A stretch of DNA of 64,000 nt, from contig SSBO01000003.1 in the NCBI GenBank assembly GCA_005281725.1, positions 953,396 through 1,017,395 on the forward strand. Reading direction: 5' to 3'. A program made the translations under genes and the position numbers. Within the stretch, counting starts at the first letter, position 1; every line of letters begins with the position of its first letter. Shown here piece by piece: positions 3,413 through 62,400 of this stretch. The notes under the pieces were generated by a model. It worked only from the letters and a program-made list of their open reading frames with translations, searched no databases and had not been told where the DNA came from. Origin of the DNA: Wuchereria bancrofti (Eukaryota > Nematoda > Chromadorea > Rhabditida > Onchocercidae).

Positions 3413-6400
3413 TCAACCGGAATTTGAGGAATCATCATGATTCATTGAAAATGAATTCCCCAATGTTGTCACATTGTCACATTTTGTCGAAATTACTGAT
3501 AACATCGATGAATCACTTTTTGCTATAACAATCATCATTTCATTTTTTTTTTTTTCGTTTAATCACAATAGACTGTTTTGAAGTGTTAATAAAATATAAA
3601 TTTGCATCTGTCAACACGTGTATTCTTCAAATTTCATAATGTTAGTATTTCATAAAATTTTAAATCTTGAATTTTTAAATTGGAAATTGTTGACTGCATT
3701 AATTCTAAGCGTAAAGAATACTTTTGTCTATTCTCAAGAATTTTCGAGAAAAAAAAAATAGATCAGAGTAGTCAGATTACCTGTATTCAGTTCCTGACCT
3801 TCAAGATATTCAAAAATAGAATTCTCATTGACACCTGAAATATGCAAGAAGTAAACAAATAATTTAAACAGTTGGTAACTCTCACAAACAATATTATTTC
3901 ATCACTTTACTTTTCATCTTCAAGAAAAATGATTGATTAGAGTAGAATAAAAAAAAGATTGTTGCATACTGCCGGAATCAAATTTGCTATTATCCGCAAA
4001 TGCAAGTAATTCTTCCATGTTATCAAGATATTGAACCGGCATTACGGTCTTCTCTGTAGAAATCAAATCTTGAATAATTTATTAAATATATATAAATTTA
4101 AAAAATGATACACCGAAAAAGTGAATTTAGAGAGATTTCATTAATCTTTAATCTAAATATTATGTAATCAAACGAACGTTGAAAACTATAATCTACCATT
4201 ATCAGTTGATGAAAATAACTCAAATTCATCGTTGATCGCTTCATTTTCTCCAACTTAATTATTTATTATTGAATTAAACCAGTAATATAGGTATTTGTAA
4301 AAAAAAAAAAAAAGAAAATGAAGTTATCTGATCAATTAATTGTAGAAAATCTGGACGAATTTAGCAGATAAAATGAAATAGATTGAACATTGAAAAAAAA
4401 AAGCTTACTTTGTTCAATAAATTCTAGCGAATCTCTAGCATATAAGCTATGAAATTTTGGTGGACGTCCTAAATTTGAAATTATCTTAAATTCATTTATG
4501 ATTTTCACATAATCAATATCTAATAATACTAAACTTACGTGTATAAATATCACTGGAAATAGTGTTACGTGTATCAACGCTTAAGATATCATCGATGCTC
4601 CATGATGTTTCCTCTGCTGCAGAATATATTATCTGTTTTATTTCTTTTTTTAGTTTTATTTTCTTGAAAAAATCCTAGTTCATTTTATATTTCATTTTCC
4701 AAAATAATCTCTTCAATATAATGTTAATATGATAATTGCTATGATTGTGTTACAAAAAGTTCCTAAATGCGCAAAAGCGCAAAAAAACACATTACCAAAA
4801 TAAAAAAGATAATCTTAAATATGAATTAATATTAAACACTTTAAGTGGTTATTAACTTTTTTTTAAACACTTTAAGTGGTTATTAACTTTTTTTTTAAAG
4901 TAATTATTAATAAATTATCAATATTGCTTACTGACTGCACAAATTTAAACGTATGAAAATTTATTGCTAATTTAAATTGTAATTGTATTTGTGATTTTAT
5001 GATAGAATTATGAGGCGTTAAATTCACATTTGAAATTGTTTGAAAACTATTTCAAAGCTGATAAACGGATCAAACTTGCTTCACTCTTGACGTTACTTAA
5101 TATTTGGCACTTTTTAAAAGCTGCTGTTAATGATAATGATTTTTGCACTAACTTTTTTCATGTTTCCAATTTGGTTTGCCGAATTTTCAGAAAAAAACAT
5201 TTATGGCATTGTTGTAAATTTAGGATTTCTTTCTTCCCTTTTCTTACTTTTATAAAAATGAATTTCAAACCATATTTCAATATCAGTGTGATTATCAAGA
5301 TAAACTCACCTGTGTTTAATTCTTTATCGGAAGTCTCTAAATCACCTGCAAATATTGTGATAAAAGATATGCAACAGCAAATAAAAAAAAATCAAAAAAT
5401 AAGATTCCAAATATTTTTAGACTACAACTAAATATTTAAATTAAACTAAGATGGTCATAATTTTAAATATTATAATGCTAATTTTTTTTTAAGATTGCCA
5501 AATCGATCATAATTTTAAATAAATTACTGATTTTGAAAATTTCAGACTGATTGTCATTTTCAATTTCAACAACTGTTTCAGATTTCGGTTCTGTATAATC
5601 AGAATAGATTAAATGCATCTCGCGACCTAAAATTATGTCTTTGCAGTATTCATATATTATTTTTAAATTATTTTCAATGCTTTATTCATTTTGGACCAAC
5701 GTAATCTTCAATAAGAGTTTTGTCTTATCTATTGCTTTCTTTATCTTTTTTATATTCATTATTGATAAACAAATCAATTATTAAAAAAAGTATTTTATAT
5801 AATTGAAATTATAGGTCGTAATATTTTCAATATTGTAAAATCAATAAGCATAAGATTGCAGTGATACAAGTGATAACATTCGATTAACATTTGATAAAAA
5901 TTTTGTATGAAGAAAAAAAAAACAATTCATACCTTCTTCTCGAATTTTCCAAAGTGCTGGATTACCTGAAAATAGTTAAAGTTGTATTTTCGAAATAAAT
6001 TTAGTTTAAATACTGAGTGGATGAAAAAAATGATTAAACTTTTTGCAGTAAAGAGAAGAAAAAAATATTTACCAAAAATAGAGCACCACGGACGTCCATC
6101 ATATTCAACATCTGTCTCTGATGGTGGCTCATCATAATCCGAATAAATTAAGTGAACTTCACGGCCTAAAACATAGTTCAACTCTTTTTAAAAAAAAAAA
6201 TTAATGCAATTTTTAATGATTTCTATACTTTGAACTTATTGTTTTAAAATAAATTTTTTAATAAAACATTTTATTAACACAGAACGAAATATTATTATTA
6301 TGAATTAAAGAAATTACATATAGTAAATTACGTATAGAACACAATTTCTTTCAAGAAAAGATTATTCAATTCCGGTTTATGCCGGACTTGTTAAAACGCA

Positions 6401-7719
6401 GTATAATATACATTAGACAAACCGTCAGTTTTTCTATTATTAAATATTTGATTTAGTTCAACACTTGTTTCAGAAGGAGGCTCATCATATTCAGAGTAAA
6501 CAAGTGATACTTCCTTGCCATCTTAAATTTTTTATTCATTAAGAAATAAATGTTTCTTATGCAAATCAATATTTTCCTATAGCCTATCTGGCTGTTTCTG
6601 ATCGAATATTGGATTTATGGAAAACAGTGGTCATCGAATTGTCACCTAAATCTAATTTCTGGTTCACATATTGGTGACAACAGCTTTTCTTTTTTTTTTT
6701 TGGTATCTCAGTGTGATGGCTTATTAATCAATGTTACTACTAATATTAGAAGTTTATGAATTTTGATCAATTTTTTAGTGTAGCTTTCTTTTTCTTTTCC
6801 ATAAATCTCAAAGAGAATAATATATCTGAAATTTTTTAAATTGATTCCACTTTAAATATTCGATTAGTTTTTCTTCTTGTTCCAAATCAGAAATTAGAAC
6901 TTTGAATTTGAGACAAAATTTTTTTGGAAGAAACTGTTACTAAATTAAAATATTAATGAAAAGCTTATTGATTACATGGAGGTGAGCAGTAATTATTGGT
7001 TCCATGTGGTGCATGATTGTAATAAAAATTAATTTCATCGCCTGCTGAAAATTATTGTTTATATTATGATGAAATATCAAAAATATATTTTAACGATGAA
7101 ATTATCATACTTACTCGATTTTGAACTTTGCCACCAATATTGTTTGGCTCCTTCGATTACCTCAACATCGGTTTCCGATGGAGTACAATCATATTCTGAA
7201 TATATTAGATGAACGCCTCGAGCTGAAAACATATTTTTTTCAAAATTTAATTTATTTCATAACCTCTCTCTCTCTCCCTCTCTCTCTCTCTCTCTCGTAA
7301 GGTAAAAGTATTACTGGTATTTCTATCATCATTATCATGACCATCCAAACATTCTTGACTTTCATCATTGACCGACGATGAGGAATGCATATTATTGAAA
7401 TTGTAAAACAACCGTCTATGATACATACAAAAGAGAGCAATGACAGAAATGAAGATAATTCATTCATTTTATAATTTTTTTTTTTTTTTTTTGAAGTTTC
7501 CGGAAGTTCGAATTAGTGATCTGAATAGTAATTTATATTAGAAAGATTTAATGGAAATAGTTGCATTCTTGAAATTCCAGAAGCGAAACAGTTTGTCATA
7601 GGATGGGTGTTGCCACAATTATTATAATTATTGCTGTTGTTGTTATTTTTTACTTCTTTTGCTGTCACGGAAAACAGGTTCTCTCTTCCAATTAGAAGAA
7701 TGAGAACCACTCCTTTTTC
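3413..7719 (-). CDS. Modular gene of symmetric phase-1 mini-exons with repeated YDEPPSETD peptide
   Basis: Exons read 5' to 3': 7654-7719, 7115-7222, 6976-7044, 6423-6521, 6073-6165, 5933-5965, 5528-5626, 5310-5345, 4539-4616, 4409-4468, 4197-4253, 3970-4053, 3781-3834, then terminal 3413-3495 with TGA. Lengths are 66, 108, 69, 99, 93, 33, 99, 36, 78, 60, 57, 84 and 54 nt. Each internal exon begins with two bases of a split codon and ends with one, so any subset joins in frame. Four exons (7115-7222, 6423-6521, 6073-6165, 5528-5626) share the pattern HLIYS(D/E)YDEPPSETDVE and look like exon duplicates. The remaining exons are acidic and almost free of cysteine. A further exon ending at 7315 holds a hydrophobic stretch, but its 5' end is unclear. 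I know no family with this peptide. It is either the cytoplasmic tail of the receptor at 8507-17003 or a separate secreted micro-exon-type gene starting at the ATG at 7467. The exon reading is fairly sure; the function is unknown. Confidence 0.7.
4833..4894. repeat. 31-bp direct duplication
   Basis: Two adjacent copies of a 31-bp unit containing TTTAAGTGGTTATTAAC, inside the intron between mini-exons 4539-4616 and 5310-5345. Confidence 0.9.
7264..7297. repeat. TC/GA simple repeat
   Basis: An almost pure CT tract in the intron between the exon ending at 7315 and the one starting at 7222. Confidence 0.9.
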
Positions 7720-8096
7720 CTGAAATTATCTTTCATTCAGGAAGGATAAGAATCACTTCTTTTACCTCAAATTATCTTTGATTCAGGAAGGATAAGAATC
7801 ACTTCTTTTACCTGAAATTATCTTTCATTCAGGAAGGGTGAGAATCACTCCTTTTTCCTGAAATTATCTTTCATTCAGGAAGGATAAGAATCACTTCCTT
7901 TACCTGAAATTATCTTTGATTCAGGAAGGGTGAGAATCACTCCTTTTTCCTGAAATTATCTTTCATTCAGGAAGGATAAGAATCACTTCTTTTACCTGAA
8001 ATTATCTTTGATTCAGGAAGGATAAGAATCACTTCTTTTACCTGAAATTATCCTTCATTCAGGAAGGATAAGAATCACTTCTTTTTCCTGAAATTG
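7719..8096. repeat. 46-bp tandem array that copies a 3' splice site
   Basis: Eight full copies start at 7719, 7765, 7811, 7857, 7903, 7949, 7995 and 8041, with a partial ninth at 8087. On the minus strand each unit carries ATAATTTCAG followed by GAAAAAGGAGTG or GTAAAAGAAGTG. The acceptor used by mini-exon 7654-7719 is the last of the series. The first bases of that exon are the first bases of the repeat unit, so the array looks like tandem duplication of an intron/exon boundary. Each unit also holds the short inverted repeat CCTGAA...TTCAGG. In the exon frame the extra copies read K-R-S-D-S-(Y/H)-P-S and then stop. Confidence 0.9.
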
Positions 8097-19998: not shown

Positions 19999-22065
19999 TC
20001 AAGTATACGAATAATTATTACTATGAAGAAGTAATTTTAATCGTTCAAAACTGACCAATTGACATCGTTCTTCTAAATCGCTAATAGCAGAATTCCATTC
20101 TTCTAACAATCGTTTCTCACGTTGTGCTTGTCTTTTGATTAGTTCTACATGTGTTTGTATAACTGTGGAAATAGCTTTTCTTTTACTCATTCCTTTCATA
20201 TTTCCTAGAAAATTACAAAATAAAATTCAAATGAGAAGTAAAATTTCAAAAAGAGCAGAAAAAATTTAAAAAAAAAAAATTGATTCTGAGTAAAATTGAA
20301 AATTAACTATGTGAGAACTATATTCGAGTATATTAATTGCTGCTCATTACAAAATTGTAAGAGTAAAATTATTTGTTTGAATTTAATTAATATTAATTCG
20401 TTGATTTAAAAAAAAAATCTTACTTTCAATATCTTTTAATAGAAGAGGAGTAAACATAGGCAAAATGTCATTGTTTGATTCTAAATTAATTGTTTGTACT
20501 GCAACATTTTTAACACTTTTCTTTCCGTCAAATTCGGTTTTCCTTGAGCAATTATCAAAATTTGCCAGCAGGTTTGTGTATTTCAGTTTGGAATGCCATG
20601 AAACATCAGATTGCTCGAGATTTTCAAGATCATCAAGATTATATTTCATATTTGCAAAATTGTTCGTATCGGCAATTGATGGTTTCCTTTTAATCTTGTA
20701 TGACCTTTTATCAAGAATAGCCAATTCTCGAGAACTTCGACTATTTGCACTAGAATTGCTTATCGATTCATATTTCAGGATGTTTCCGGAATTCAATTTA
20801 TTACATTTCATACTACAAATATTATCATCCTTCCTATGCTTCCTATTTTCTTCTGAATAATTCAATTTTTCCTTCCTTTCATGTTTTTTTGTCTCGTAGC
20901 TGCCGGATTTATAACTTTCTGTTGTTCTCGTCGTAGAATACAATGTTTCACTATCACTAATACTTTCAAATTCATTTTCCTCGTTCGATACGAATTGTTT
21001 TGTTTGTTTAACAGATAATCTATTAGTACTTGAAGAGTTACTACTACTACTACTACTACTGCTATTATTACTTTTATAATTTTCCATTTCAAAGTCCATT
21101 GATTTTCTTGCTGTCGAATTATTCTGTGTAAGTTTTCTGGAAGAATTCGAACTTGTTGAAGATGAAGAAGAGTAATTTTCAGTTGAAGTTATTTCTTCAA
21201 AACCATTCAAATCGTAATTAGACATCTTTTCTTCGTTTATTTCAGACATTTCATCAGTAACTGAATAAGCTGAGCTTATAGTGCTTGGAGATGATGATTC
21301 AGTGATAATAGTACTTTTGAATAGTAATCGTTTCGTGGTATTTGTCTCTTTGTCAATGCCATTATCATCAAACTAGAAAATTAAATTTACATTATTATGA
21401 AGTATTTATGAAGCAATGAATAGTGAAAATTAGTTTTGTCAAAAAAATAACTTTCTTTAAGGAAGAAACATAAGTAATGACGTATATTTAGAAAAAAAAA
21501 CAAACAAACAAACAAACATATTTGAGTTTAATTCAAAATTAATTTACACTGTAAGAATCTTAGATTTTAATAATTCTGTGAAATGTAGATAATTAATTAC
21601 TTGAAACTGCCCAGAATCTGTTATGGCTGAGTGCGGGTAAGTCATCTGTTGTGAATTACTTTGCTCTGAAATCTTTTCTCTTTTATAATATAATGCACAA
21701 AATGAGATAAAAATTTCTAACATAAGGCTTTATAGAAAGTTTATTTCAATTATTAATCAAAACAAAATTAAATGATAATCAAAAGAAATGTGCGCATGCA
21801 TATTTCTTTGTTCAGCAGAAAAAAAAAACATACCAAGGATGTATTTCTCATTGGATTTTTGATTTGTGAAAATATTTAAATCGTCTAATGATTTCCATTC
21901 AAAATTACCTGAAGTTGAATATCCAGAGCGAAGTTTATTGGCGGTAATTGCAGCATCAATTATAGGTTTCTCTTTTTTATTAGATATTTGCTTATCTTCT
22001 GTAGGCGTTATAAGTGAGAGTTTGTGAAATTGTTCGATTGAAATTTGCTCTTGACGTGATCCCAT
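19999..22065 (-). CDS. Ser/Asn-rich protein with C-terminal coiled coil, function unknown
   Basis: Four exons with matching phases: 21834-22065 (ATG at 22065), 21601-21665, 20424-21372 and 19999-20204, giving about 483 residues. The N-terminal half is hydrophilic with long Ser and Asn runs (ENYSSSSSTSSNSSRK and a run of nine serines followed by NSSS). Near residue 400 comes a more ordered patch: SWHSKLKYTNLLANFDNC, then KNVAVQT. The last exon is a charged helix (HVELIKRQAQREKRLLEEW, SDLEERC) that should form a coiled coil. KNVAVQT-like strings occur in centrosomal coiled-coil proteins, but that is not enough to assign a role. No signal peptide or membrane segment is present, so it is probably cytosolic or cytoskeletal. 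Confidence 0.75.
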
Positions 22066-41518: not shown

Positions 41519-44500
41519 ATGGCAAAATTCCCACTCTCGAATTGCTTACTTTTAATTTTACTAATATTGGTACTTGCTGATCGAATTAATGCTATTCCAA
41601 TCGATAATGCTGTTGAAGGTGAACCTGAAATTGAATGTGGTCCAGCATCAGTTACTGTTAATTTCAATACAAGGAATTTATTTGAAGGTATTTCTTTTTA
41701 AATCAAAAAATTTGCTGTAATTCAAAATTTATTGTAAAAAAATTTATTGCAATTGTAACATAGACTAGTTGTTTCGATGCTTTCATTTTCCTGTTTTTAA
41801 AATAACTTTATATTTTTTATAGTTCCCATTTTCCACTTATCTCTTTTCCTGATGTCTGCAATAAGCCTAAGAATTTAAATATGAATAAATGAGCTATCTA
41901 AATCTGATCAAATTGATACAAAAAGTTCATCAAGAGTTATTTATTTGTTGACTTAAAAGTCATAAAATAATTTTAAAAACTGCTTGGAATTATCAAAAAT
42001 GAAATAAAAATAACAAAATAATCAATTGATTCGGTTTCTATTCAATAAAGTTGAAACCCAATCGGATGAGATTTGCTAATTTCTTTGGTTCTTCTTGAAT
42101 TTAAATTAGCAGATTTCATCAAAATTCAAGTCCGTGAATATACAAAGAAATTGAATAATTAATAACAGTGATATTTTCATACCTTTGAAGAATTTGATAT
42201 TTCATTTCATTTCATTTCATTTCACTTTTCACTTTTCACTTTTATATGCACTTGAAAATGTTCCTCGCTGTAATGTAATTTGAAGAGCACGGCATTATCC
42301 AAGATTTTCTTTTCAAAGTTATGAAAATTCATTATTTCATTCTTATTAAAAAAATTTTTTTTTTTTCTGTTCATAAAGATAATTTGAAATTGTTTTTAAT
42401 AACGATACACATTAACAATGATTCAATCATATTATTCAGGACATGTTTATGTGAAAGGCTTATACAATGAGCAAGATTGTCGATCAGATGCAGGTGGTCG
42501 TCAGGTAGTAGGAATTGAAATTCTCTTTGATACATGTAATATGGCACGGACAAGATCGTTAAATCCACGTGGTGTCTTTGTGACAGCCACTGTAGTCATC
42601 TCATTTCATCCATTATTCATTACTAAAATTGATCGTGCTTATCGTATTCAATGCTTTTATGTGGAAACTGATCAAACAGTGAGTACTCAAATTGAAGTTT
42701 CTAAAATGACTACTATTTTCCAGACTCAAATGATTCAAATGCCAATTTGCCGATATGAGGTCATTTATTGATTTGTTCATTCATATAACCATAATTATAA
42801 TCATAAAGAGGTCAAATCAGAAAGAAGAAAGAAGAATTGATACATTGTTATCATTGTTTCATTCTTAACTGTAGTATATATATGAGTATTTGAAGTGAAG
42901 AAGGACACAAACAACTGTTTTTAGTTTTAAAAAAAATTGTTTAACAACATATTTGAAATTTTATGAGTTTTCACTTTTAGCATCTTGATCAAATAATTAA
43001 TGCTTATCAAATTATATTTGTTTGTTATTATATTCCATTGATTTCTCAATTTTAGCTACTTGATAATAGTCCAACAGGTGAACCGGTTCAATTCGCTGTC
43101 ATTGGTCAACCAATTTATCATAGATGGACATGTGATTCAGAAGCTGTTGATACATTTTGCGCATTGGTACATTCATGTTTTGTTGATGATGGTAATGGTG
43201 ATACGGTGCAAATTTTAAATGAAGAAGGCTGTGCTTTAGATAAATATTTACTAAATAACTTAGAATATCCAACTGATTTAATGGCTGGACAAGAAGCACA
43301 CGTATATATGTATGCCGATCGATCGCAACTTTCTTATCAATGTCAAATAACAATTACAATCAAAGAGCCAAATACTGATTGTGAGCGACCGGTATGTTCA
43401 GAACCGGAAGGATTCGGTGCAATTCAGCAAAATAACAGGATAAATCGTGAAACAGTAATTCCATTAGTGACACCTGCATCACATATTAGATTATTGAAAA
43501 AAAGAGCTGCTGATTACGATACTACAGTAGATGTCAGGACTGATATTAATACATTGGACATTATCGATGAGGTTAGTTAAGTTTTTTTTTTTGAAATTTA
43601 ATTTGAGTAAAATGTGAATATATCTTTGATAATTAGCAATTAGCAAATTCTTCATTATGTTCTTAGTTTTAATTAGCAATTAGCAAATTCTTCATTATGT
43701 TCTTAGTTTTTTTTCTTTTTATTATAAAATCTTCTTTTTTTTTTTATTAGAAAATGCATTTACACTTTCATACAGTATTTATAGTTTCTAATTTAAGCTT
43801 CTGAATTAAAATCATTTGCTCCGACTATCGATCATTTCCACAAAATGCATTTTAAATACTTCTCCCTACATTTAAATGACAAAAAAAAAATTTCTTTTCT
43901 TTGATTTAATTAGTTTGATTCAATAACATTAAAATTTTCCATTGAAATTTCGAAACTAATTTGGAAAAAAAAAAGTACAGTATGAAACTATTCTGTAATG
44001 TTTATACCATCAACAAACCATTGTTAAGTATTCTAGTAGCGTCAAATGAAATGATACCTTGAGTCAATTGCGCCTACTCAATAGTGCATTTGCAACGCAG
44101 CATTATGTGCTATGCAGAATTTTAAGACAATTGGTATTCTCTACAAATATAAAAATGTACTATATTTTAACTTAAACATTATATCGAAATGAATCAAAAT
44201 TCTTTCACTTTTACTTAATAATTGAGATTACAAGAAAAAACTGAAATTTTTTTCTTTTCTTTTCAAGGCATAGAATTTTTGCAAAATATGAATTACTCAA
44301 GAACAAAACTGTAAATTTACTTTTAACTTCTTATACTATAATGCTAACATGTAAAGAAATATCATTCACTCATTGTGAAATTCATTTTTATCTAAGATCT
44401 GTCCGTGACTCTTAACTTTAAAAGACTTTGATAAATTTTTACTTAGATCTGTCCGTGACTCTTAACTTTAAAAGACTTTGATAAATTTTTATTTAGATCA

Positions 44501-59480: not shown

Positions 59481-62400
59481 TTAAAGATCCGGAAAACGAT
59501 TAGCATCTTCCCGATACGACTTTGGTATTTTGAATATTTTTGACGTTAGATCATTGCGGAACATGAATTTCTGGAATGTGACCTTCGCTGATATTGTTGG
59601 TAGTATGGGAATTTCTGAAATGAAACAATGGGATATAAAAACAATTTATAGAAAAGATGGAAGCAATTAATTCTAAAATATACTTTTTGAACTTTAGAAG
59701 TATTTACCAATTCGGACTGGAAAACCAGGTGGCATCCTCACTTTACAAAAACACCGCAATTTATCGAAGTGCTTGAAAGGTGCGACAATTTCGAGAATAT
59801 CCAATAAAACGTCAATCGAAAGAGGAAAATCTTCGGCCTAGAAAAGGTGAATGTTTTAGAAAAAAAAACAGCTCGAAAAGAAACTCAACAACTAGCATTT
59901 GTTTGATAAATCCATTACTTTAATCATTAATGATATAAAGGTAAATACTGATACATTATGCTGCAATTATTGTCCGATGTTTTGAATCTTTGTCAGCTAA
60001 TAAAGTTGCTGAACAAGTTTTTTTTTTCTGCATCGTTTCTCTTAGTACGATAAGTGAAAGTTTTTGAAAAATTTCTACAAAATATCCGAAATAATACTTC
60101 AAATATTTCATACAATTTTGCCATTAGTAAATAAAAATTTTACCATTGCAACAAGAGCTTTGAATTTCTTTGTATTTTGCTTAAGAACCTGAGCACGTCC
60201 TAGAGAAGGAGCAAGACCAGCAGCAGCATTAATATATTCTTCCCAAGTGACCGTTGTTCTTCGAGGTGGAGGCAAACTTTTTCGGTGCTGAAGGCTCTGA
60301 AACTGATATCTCTACAGACAACATACACGAATGGCGTAAATAAATTTCAATTATTTTTAATGTTACCAGTGCGTTACTGAGAACTCAATAAGCCAATAAA
60401 ACTCTGATAGAAATCAAAATAACTGCGAAACGAAAAATTTTTTTAACTTACTATGAATTCATCTTCTGCCATCAGTGATCCGATTGCTAAACTTTGCATG
60501 AATGCTTTATTTTTCTTGATATCTTCTGCTGTCAAGTGCTCTCTGCTACAAAATGATACTTCTTAGAAAAACAAAAATAATGAAATAAACGAAACGAAAA
60601 CTTCTCACACCATTCTCACATCTTAGATCATAAGGTCAAGTCTCAAAATAATTAAGTAATTCGAATCGGACGACTTTAATATTAATTCGTTATTTTTGTT
60701 TCCCTGATGATTGCTCTCTTAAATGGATGTTCTATTCATCGCAAGATAATGGAAAGAGAAATGAAACCTTCCAGAGAAATAAAAACTATAAACTTATTCT
60801 TCCTAATCAAATAGTAATTCACAGCTTCCAAAAAATTTTCAGAACAAAAACTAACCGTTTACGTGTAATTAGTGACATACCCTCCACAGTATAATAAACG
60901 GCATTATAATCACCCACTTGTTCCTACAAAATCAACATCTACATTATAAAAGAACGCCAAAAGCTGTCAAAATGACAGTTTAACCTCTGCTTTTGAAGAC
61001 GAAAGCCCGAAAAGAATTAGAGCAAATTAAACAATTGAAAACAAAAAGAAAAGTACCAATTTCTCGTGTTTGAAAATCCAACCACTTATCGTTCTTTCAA
61101 ACGTTATTGGTTTTGTAGATATCTGAGCGCTTACAATATCAGAAGACATTAGAACATCAATTTCTTCATCCAATTCAGCCTCTGATTCTTCGTGCCTTAT
61201 ACGTTGGAATACCTCAAATACCACAGTTATATTGTAAGCCGAAAGAAACGAATAAATTAATATGCAAATAAGATCAATAAATTTCTTCGCAAAAAAAACA
61301 CTGAAAAAAACCTTAGCCTCATGATCTAAAATCAGAAGCTGGTCCTTCGAGCGATCCGAATCTGATGAAAAGATGAAGGATATATTGCCTCGTTCCCAGG
61401 TTCGATCAGTAAAATCAACTAGTGTTGTGTCCAACCTTAGGTTTGTCCCATATTTGTATATCTTGCATACATCTGATGGAAGTATCTTAGTGAGCAGAGG
61501 AACTGAAATTTAAAAGATTTATGAATTTTTGTAACCACATAAATCTAAACTTGCATTGCGAGATTTGTATGCTAATTTAATAAGCATCACTTTAATTACG
61601 AGTCTCGTCGCTTATCTTGAATATTCTTTAAGACCTCATCTGTCTAAAGTTTGTGATATAAGCGAATCCACCACAAAACAGGAAAAAAGACTAATAACGG
61701 TAAGTACAACTTACGCCAGCTTTGAAAGTCCCATCTTAATTCCATATAGAAATCACCAAACTCAGACAACATCTCAAGTAAGTGAGGTTTTCGAGCTGCC
61801 ATATTTTCCCGTGATTGTGCCTTCAATTTACGTAACATAGCTGTAACTGAAATTGAACAAAAATTAACTTTTAATGGTACGGCATGTGAGCAGTTTCAGT
61901 AACCTGTTTAACCTGATATATATGACTCTGGAAAGAAGCATTAAGGTTTTCCACTATTTCTGAATTTTCTCATGGAAATATAACTCACATTTAATGCTGA
62001 TTCAAATTAACCAGTATATAATCATACTAACATTCACATAAGAATCAGTCATAACTTACCAGTATTCAAACAAAAATCTTGAACTGAAAAGATATTATAG
62101 TCTAAAATGTAGTCTAAAACAAGCCCACGCATAGCTACTGTGGGAAATTTTAGCAGAAGCAGAAAGTCGTACTGTTCATTAAAAAACATGGCTGGAAGAT
62201 AGATAATATGAAGTGAGAAAATTTTCCACAACGACAGTAATTAAAGAGAAATGAATTTACTTATTTGTCGGTCGCCATAGCTTACTGCTTCCATTAAGCT
62301 ATTCCATCCATCCTTGTTTTTTGATTTTACTGGAGCATTATGAGCAAGAAGAAGTGTTGTTGCCTCTGAAAATGAATTATCATGCACAAAATAATGAGAA

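What the first reader, a model, noticed from the sequence alone, without database searches (positions are those of the whole stretch)
3413..7719. A nematode micro-exon-type gene: 13 consecutive symmetric phase-1 exons
Seen: 13 internal exons of 33-108 nt, every one a multiple of 3 and phase 1-1, then a terminal exon with a stop. Known: micro-exon genes of schistosomes use symmetric short exons to make many secreted variants. I know of no comparable gene in nematodes. Inference: any subset of exons can be joined in frame, so the locus is built for combinatorial splicing (up to 2^13 products in principle). If real, this is a variation-generating locus in a parasitic worm.
Basis: partly seen in the sequence, partly recalled or inferred. 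Interest (0 to 1): 0.92.

Follow-up and report, generated by a model that had tools for sequence, protein, structure and literature searches.

The report
Filarial gene of thirteen skippable exons
A gene found at one place in a filarial worm genome (likely Wuchereria bancrofti) reads as thirteen short internal exons that all break codons at the same point, so any of them could be skipped without shifting the reading frame; it likely makes an intracellular docking protein rather than a secreted variable antigen.

Summary
The gene is real and lies on the minus strand. Fifteen coding exons (7390 down to 3207) join into one frame of 356 residues plus stop. All 14 introns are phase 1 and 13 internal exons (33-108 nt) are symmetric. 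A Brugia malayi protein (BM_BM10331) aligns with all 15 exons; two published W. bancrofti fragments trace to 13 of them. The "micro-exon gene" label fails: 6 of 15 exons are under 70 nt and divisible by three, the longest such run is 2, the window's reading has no signal-like start, and the exons hit one locus. Four exons are tandem duplicates of one motif (YSxYxxPPSETxVE), kept one-to-one across filarial models (one model lacks one copy), so old and stable, not hypervariable. Most likely it is an acidic, probably disordered docking scaffold whose symmetric exons permit cassette splicing. Annotated models differ by whole exons (notably E2, E7, E10), but predictors can drop symmetric exons silently, so splicing variation is unproven.

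The parts
7315..7390 (-). First coding exon (N), ATG at 7390, MHSSSSVNDESQ..., ends phase 1
   Evidence: 24 of 25 residues in P0013 (W. bancrofti)
7115..7222 (-). Internal exon E1, 108 nt, phase 1-1, motif copy 1 (VHLIYSEYDCTPSETDVE)
6976..7044 (-). Internal exon E2, 69 nt, phase 1-1; present in 4 of the 11 models that reach it (candidate cassette); read-through of its donor would give CNQ-stop
6423..6521 (-). Internal exon E3, 99 nt, phase 1-1, motif copy 2; donor gtttgt; missing only from P0015
6073..6165 (-). Internal exon E4, 93 nt, phase 1-1, motif copy 3, strongly conserved
5933..5965 (-). Internal exon E5, 33 nt, phase 1-1 (NPALWKIREE)
5528..5626 (-). Internal exon E6, 99 nt, phase 1-1, motif copy 4 (MHLIYSDYTEPKSETVVE)
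5310..5345 (-). Internal exon E7, 36 nt, phase 1-1; absent from P0002, P0004, P0015
4539..4616 (-). Internal exon E8, 78 nt, phase 1-1
4409..4468 (-). Internal exon E9, 60 nt, phase 1-1
4197..4253 (-). Internal exon E10, 57 nt, phase 1-1; absent from the published W. bancrofti fragment P0021; present in P0001 and P0003
3970..4053 (-). Internal exon E11, 84 nt, phase 1-1; an in-frame upstream acceptor 15 nt away would match the longer start in B. malayi
3781..3834 (-). Internal exon E12, 54 nt, phase 1-1
3418..3522 (-). Internal exon E13, 105 nt, phase 1-1; if its donor (gttgac) is not used it ends at TGA 3415-3413
   Evidence: endings in P0001/P0003/P0015 versus P0002/P0004/P0016/P0021
3207..3226 (-). 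Terminal exon E14, encodes (V)SFESI-stop
   Evidence: identical in B. malayi P0001

Best explanation
It reads as a gene with fifteen coding exons, found at one place in this genome and with an annotated ortholog in Brugia malayi, whose thirteen internal exons are all symmetric phase 1-1, and it likely makes an acidic, predicted-disordered intracellular protein that would act as a docking scaffold with four copies of one short motif. Shown here: exon borders consistent with published models, phases, one continuous frame of 356 residues, one locus in the genome, orthologs in filariae, four exons that are tandem duplicates, no hydrophobic start or membrane span in the W. bancrofti reading. Inferred: each motif copy (hydrophobic strand VxLI, then YSxYxxPPSETxVE) is a docking site, possibly switched by phosphorylation of its S, T and Y residues. 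Exon copying at phase 1 would have raised the number of sites from two or three in other nematodes to four in filariae. Because every intron is phase 1, linker exons such as E2, E7 and E10 would be included or skipped without a frameshift, tuning the spacing between sites rather than producing antigenic variants. Untested: any splice junction in RNA, cell location, and the partner protein.
For: Structure. Orthologs: (B. malayi, W. bancrofti, L. sigmodontis, O. ochengi, O. volvulus, D. immitis, C. johnstoni, Loa loa, plus G. pulchrum, T. callipaeda and, at E 3.7e-8, Toxocara canis). One locus. Exon duplication: E1, E3, E4 and E6 all align with one another with 0 of 300 shuffles reaching the score in each of the six pairs; the other 72 of 78 exon pairs are at 0.03 or above. 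Motif in weakly matched proteins: P0022 (Panagrellus), P0024 (Parelaphostrongylus) and P0023 (origin not stated) score with a motif matrix trained without them; 0 of 2000 shuffles of each reach their best score. Composition: 74 acidic and 24 basic of 356, best 19-residue hydropathy 0.44. AlphaFold2 mean pLDDT 31.8, 353 of 354 residues below 50. Annotated models differ by whole exons: P0001 versus P0002 in B. malayi at E2, E7, E10 and the ending.
Against: No transcript was examined. Gene predictors lose nothing by missing a symmetric exon, so exon differences between models may be annotation noise. The low pLDDT came from only 12 sequences and cannot tell disorder from a poorly sampled fold. 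One filarial model, L. sigmodontis P0003, starts upstream with a hydrophobic, signal-like stretch (best 11-residue hydropathy 2.09). A related stretch (47.6% over 21 residues) lies upstream in this window, in another frame. No domain family matched at its cut-off, so docking is inference from repetition and conservation. The matches to P0022, P0023 and P0024 have E-values of 0.17, 0.17 and 7.8, and they were picked for shared words, which flatters the shuffle test. The published W. bancrofti fragment P0013 does not continue to E8 but ends after E7 in a different segment (about 5095-5070, ending in TGA), on a contig of only 2,897 bases.
Confidence: 0.5

Rival explanations
1. A schistosome-style micro-exon gene: secreted, hypervariable by exon skipping, used at the host interface.
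For: Symmetric exon run that allows any subset; hydrophobic N-terminus in L. sigmodontis P0003; whole-exon differences between models.
Against: Size and run criteria not met (6 of 15 exons under 70 nt and divisible by 3, longest run 2; against PMC7653826). MEG products are described as all having a signal peptide and MEGs as apparently restricted to platyhelminths (PMC4350168 passages). One locus. The repeated exons are strongly conserved.
Confidence: 0.08
2. An ordinary constitutive gene: all exons are always joined, the phase uniformity is a relic of old exon duplication and shuffling, and model differences are annotation errors.
For: Four of the 13 internal exons are duplicates. No RNA evidence of skipping was available. 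Old and new B. malayi models of the same gene could simply be a revision. The four motif exons stay in the filarial models that reach them: E1, E4 and E6 in 9 of 9, E3 in 8 of 9. Donors of E3 (gtttgt) and E6 (gtaatt) look as poor as those near the variable exons, yet these exons are kept.
Against: E2 is well conserved (22 of 23 residues with B. malayi, 18 of 23 with O. volvulus) yet missing in 7 of 11 models, including O. ochengi, described as the sister species of O. volvulus (title), which has it. E10 is missing in 5 of the 7 models that span it.
Confidence: 0.35
3. The exons are the cytoplasmic tail of the upstream neighbour (minus strand, about 16650-8674), one long receptor-like protein.
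For: Same strand; the neighbour is cysteine-rich; its last coding exon lies only about 1.3 kb upstream of the ATG. I tried this join first.
Against: Database proteins keep the two apart. Five orthologs of the neighbour end after SNQ/SQ..SPTN..GF (P0006, P0008, P0010, P0011, P0012; P0005 runs on for a different 22-residue end, P0007 and P0009 stop earlier), and the tail proteins start with their own methionine. Reading the gap by eye I saw no transmembrane exon on this strand.
Confidence: 0.03

Closest known systems
Brugia malayi BM_BM10331 / Bm10331 and filarial orthologs (uncharacterised)
   Same: Same gene: P0001 aligns with all 15 exons of the window model
   Different: Only annotated; not named in the papers searched (older gene names were not searched); models differ in exons E2, E7, E10, the end of the first exon and the C-terminus
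Platyhelminth micro-exon genes (MEGs)
   Same: Consecutive symmetric exons that allow exon skipping in frame
   Different: Internal exons mostly 54-108 nt, not micro; no signal-like start in the window's reading; found at one locus; conserved motifs; nematode
C. elegans tissue-regulated short exons and microexons (PMC7706725, passages read)
   Same: Short, often frame-preserving exons; alternative exons there overlap disordered regions more often than constitutive ones
   Different: That work tallies single exons across many genes; here a whole coding sequence is built that way
Tandem exon duplication in repeat proteins (general, recalled)
   Same: Phase-matched copies of one exon give protein repeats
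   Different: Only 4 of 13 internal exons are recognisable copies; the remaining nine are not recognisably related yet share the same phase

Membership tests
Micro-exon gene (operational test of PMC7653826) | At least seven exons | tested here: met
   15 coding exons (criterion read)
[quoted passage not shown]
   6 of 15 (criterion read)
[quoted passage not shown]
   Longest run 2, exons E9-E10
Micro-exon gene (PMC4350168) | Signal peptide, secreted or membrane-anchored product | tested here: not met
   W. bancrofti N-terminus MHSSSSVNDESQ is hydrophilic; best 11-residue hydropathy near the start is 0.1. One ortholog, P0003, has a hydrophobic extension. Tested by hydropathy only; no dedicated signal-peptide predictor was available
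Micro-exon gene (PMC4350168) | Alternative splicing yields a pool of similar proteins | tested here: inconclusive
   Annotated models differ by whole exons; no reads
Micro-exon gene (PMC4350168) | Fast evolution of the mature protein (high dN/dS) | not testable with these tools
   No DNA of relatives held; protein identity per exon shows motif exons strongly conserved
BM_BM10331 ortholog group | Full-length alignment with shared exon-sized blocks and single locus | tested here: met

The most novel reading that the evidence does not exclude
A splice-programmable scaffold: every coding intron sits in phase 1, so the worm can set the number and spacing of docking motifs by exon choice, tissue by tissue, and the motif YSxYxxPPSETxVE is an undescribed docking site used by small disordered proteins across nematodes.
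Probability: 0.25. Interest if true: 0.68.

Novelty: new variant of a known kind. Interest (0 to 1): 0.42.

Why it matters
If cassette use is real, this is a non-secreted nematode gene in which nearly the whole coding sequence is a string of frame-neutral exons. That would separate the architecture from the idea that it serves antigenic variation in parasitic worms. The repeated motif also gives a concrete handle on a protein family without any annotated domain that is shared by filarial parasites of people and animals.

Tried and rejected
Joining the tail to the cysteine-rich neighbour as one receptor (query) was rejected because orthologs keep the two proteins apart. A spliced signal-peptide first exon (MNELSSFLSLLSFVCIID, upstream ATG at 7467) was considered: it is out of frame with the conserved start, and needs a poor gttgtt donor to join E1 in frame; not adopted, not excluded. 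Exon 7719-7654 rejected (overlaps the minisatellite, no ortholog). Solved-structure search gave nothing for the neighbour's exons and only two weak, unrelated chains (E 0.28 and 0.66) for the profile. Pfam found no domain at its cut-off. Motif words in papers: none found in the held library. Gene names in papers: none. A search of the genome with the Panagrellus protein found nothing, which shows little. Two known short-motif types were considered from memory only, a SUMO-binding type (VxLI followed by acidic residues) and an SH2-type (YDEP in two of four copies); neither was tested.

Full report
What is there. The feature lies on the minus strand. I listed splice-compatible segments, then joined exons by their borders. 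With the start at ATG 7390 and the last exon at 3226-3207 the model has 15 coding exons and 1071 nt: 356 residues and one stop, at the end. The 13 internal exons are 108, 69, 99, 93, 33, 99, 36, 78, 60, 57, 84, 54 and 105 nt; all are phase 1-1 and all 14 introns are phase 1. Introns are 70-693 nt.

Is it real? Three lines say yes. First, B. malayi protein P0001 (BM_BM10331) aligns at all 15 exons. Second, two published W. bancrofti protein fragments trace to the same borders with a few residue differences: P0013 covers the first exon and E1-E7, P0021 covers part of E7, then E8, E9, E11, E12 and E13. Together they cover 13 of 15 exons; E10 and the last exon are in neither. Against a single chain, P0013 leaves the model after E7: its last eight residues fit a segment at about 5095-5070 that ends in TGA, an alternative ending proposed on a 2,897-base contig. 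Third, nine further database models are orthologs (P0002, P0003, P0004, P0014, P0015, P0016, P0018, P0019, P0020), and Toxocara canis P0017 is a more distant relative (E 3.7e-8). The exons match only this place in the genome (the tool calls its counts lower bounds). The neighbour on the same strand, traced with P0005, has intron phases 2,1,2,0,0,1,0,2,0, so 2 of 9 are phase 1 (the trace begins inside an exon and its last exon is doubtful). Uniform phase is thus a trait of this gene and not of its neighbour.

Organism. The window's neighbour matches W. bancrofti P0005 at 100% over the part aligned and B. pahangi P0006 at 92%; P0013 differs from the window by 1 residue over its first exon and E1-E7. 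I take the window to be W. bancrofti.

Corrections to the finding. No ortholog contains it. The exon at 3522 can end either at TGA 3413 (ending ..SNSG) or at a donor at 3418 and splice to 3226-3207 (ending ..SNSVSFESI). Among the seven models with this C-terminus, three have the second type (P0001, P0003, P0015) and four the first (P0002, P0004, P0016, P0021).

Repeats. E1, E3, E4 and E6 are copies of one exon (0 of 300 shuffles in each of six pairs); no other of the 78 pairs went below 0.03. The copies are orthologous one-to-one across filarial models, except that D. immitis P0015 lacks copy 2 (E3); Toxocara has two copies. Three weak database matches, P0022 (Panagrellus), P0024 (Parelaphostrongylus) and P0023 (origin not stated), carry two or three copies of the core; a matrix trained on other proteins finds them, with 0 of 2000 shuffles reaching the best score for each, though their search E-values are only 0.17, 7.8 and 0.17. 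They were picked because they share words with the query, so the shuffle test flatters them. That two of the three are nematodes is the better argument.

Exon use in annotated models (12 models, several truncated). E2: present in 4 of 11 models that reach it, absent in 7. E10: present in 2 of 7 that span it. E7: absent in P0002, P0004 and P0015, present in P0001, P0003, P0013, P0016 and P0018, begun inside by P0021, unclear or not reached in the other three (P0014, P0019, P0020). Among models that span them, E3 is missing only from P0015, E8 and E12 only from P0016, E9 only from P0004. The two B. malayi models differ at E2, E7, E10, the end of the first exon and the C-terminus. This is what cassette splicing would look like, but it is also what predictors do with symmetric exons, whose loss costs no frame. 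I therefore call it suggestive only. No held paper names Bm10331; two papers on B. malayi RNA were looked at in passages. Older gene names were not searched.

Location and fold. The reading has 74 acidic and 24 basic residues of 356 and no hydrophobic span. AlphaFold2 gave mean pLDDT 31.8 from 12 sequences, so disorder is likely but not shown. L. sigmodontis P0003 has a hydrophobic start, and a related stretch in this window is out of frame with the conserved ATG.

Comparison. Micro-exon genes were tested by features read in PMC7653826 and PMC4350168 (passages): exon count met; share of exons, run length and signal peptide not met; splicing inconclusive; evolution rate not testable. It works like a symmetric-exon gene but is not a member of that class. 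PMC4838654 (passages) treats runs of three or more symmetric exons in human genes as a class and finds their link to disorder largely due to collagens. PMC7706725 (passages) reports that alternative exons in C. [quoted passage not shown]

Novelty. A search for micro-exon genes with nematodes returned 30 papers, 25 listed (listing seen); I read passages of two of these and of PMC4413821, found in another search, which concludes that antigenic variation in the sense of unicellular parasites appears absent in parasitic worms. None of what I read describes this gene. The gene itself is already in databases without a function.

Noticed in passing
window 16651-8674, minus strand: Neighbouring gene of about 830 residues (orthologs P0006, P0008, P0010, P0012) with several cysteine-rich blocks ending in CCC..C; no Pfam family at its cut-off for P0006. 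It may share an operon with the gene studied: the gap from its last coding exon to the next ATG is about 1.3 kb.
   Followed up: partly
window 7695-8095: 46-bp tandem repeat of 8.7 copies, found at one place in the genome; on the minus strand most units hold TTTCAG (some TTTCAGGTAAA), so it repeats acceptor-like and sometimes donor-like letters just upstream of the gene.
   Followed up: partly
window 7467-7405, minus strand: Upstream ATG opening a hydrophobic, signal-like stretch (MNELSSFLSLLSF..), out of frame with the gene here but similar to the in-frame start of the L. sigmodontis model. A further ATG at 7426 is in frame with 7390 and would add twelve residues, MYHRRLFYNFNN.
   Followed up: partly
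window 7603-7695, plus strand: Short open frame MGVATIIIIIAVVVIFYFFCC.. on the opposite strand, membrane-span-like, made of ATT/GTT-rich sequence; probably chance.
   Followed up: no
window 5095-5070, minus strand: Segment used as the end of the published W. bancrofti fragment P0013 (VTSRVKQV-stop) after E7: possible alternative last exon or a prediction artefact of a short contig.
   Followed up: partly
window 42403-43577, plus strand: Two open pieces match the cuticlin N-terminal and C-terminal domains (PF25057, PF25301): likely a cuticlin gene.
   Followed up: no
window 61030-61509, minus strand: Open piece matching ANKRD13 C-terminal domain (PF11904).
   Followed up: no
window 20383-21372, minus strand: Open piece of 329 residues, rich in serine, no Pfam family at E 0.01.
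   Followed up: no
P0004, P0012, P0015, P0019, P0020 database names: Names such as SET domain, 3-keto-steroid reductase, imidazoleglycerol-phosphate dehydratase, Agenet and Tudor are attached to these nematode proteins; Pfam scans of P0019 and P0020 found no family, so at least those two names look mistaken.
   Followed up: partly
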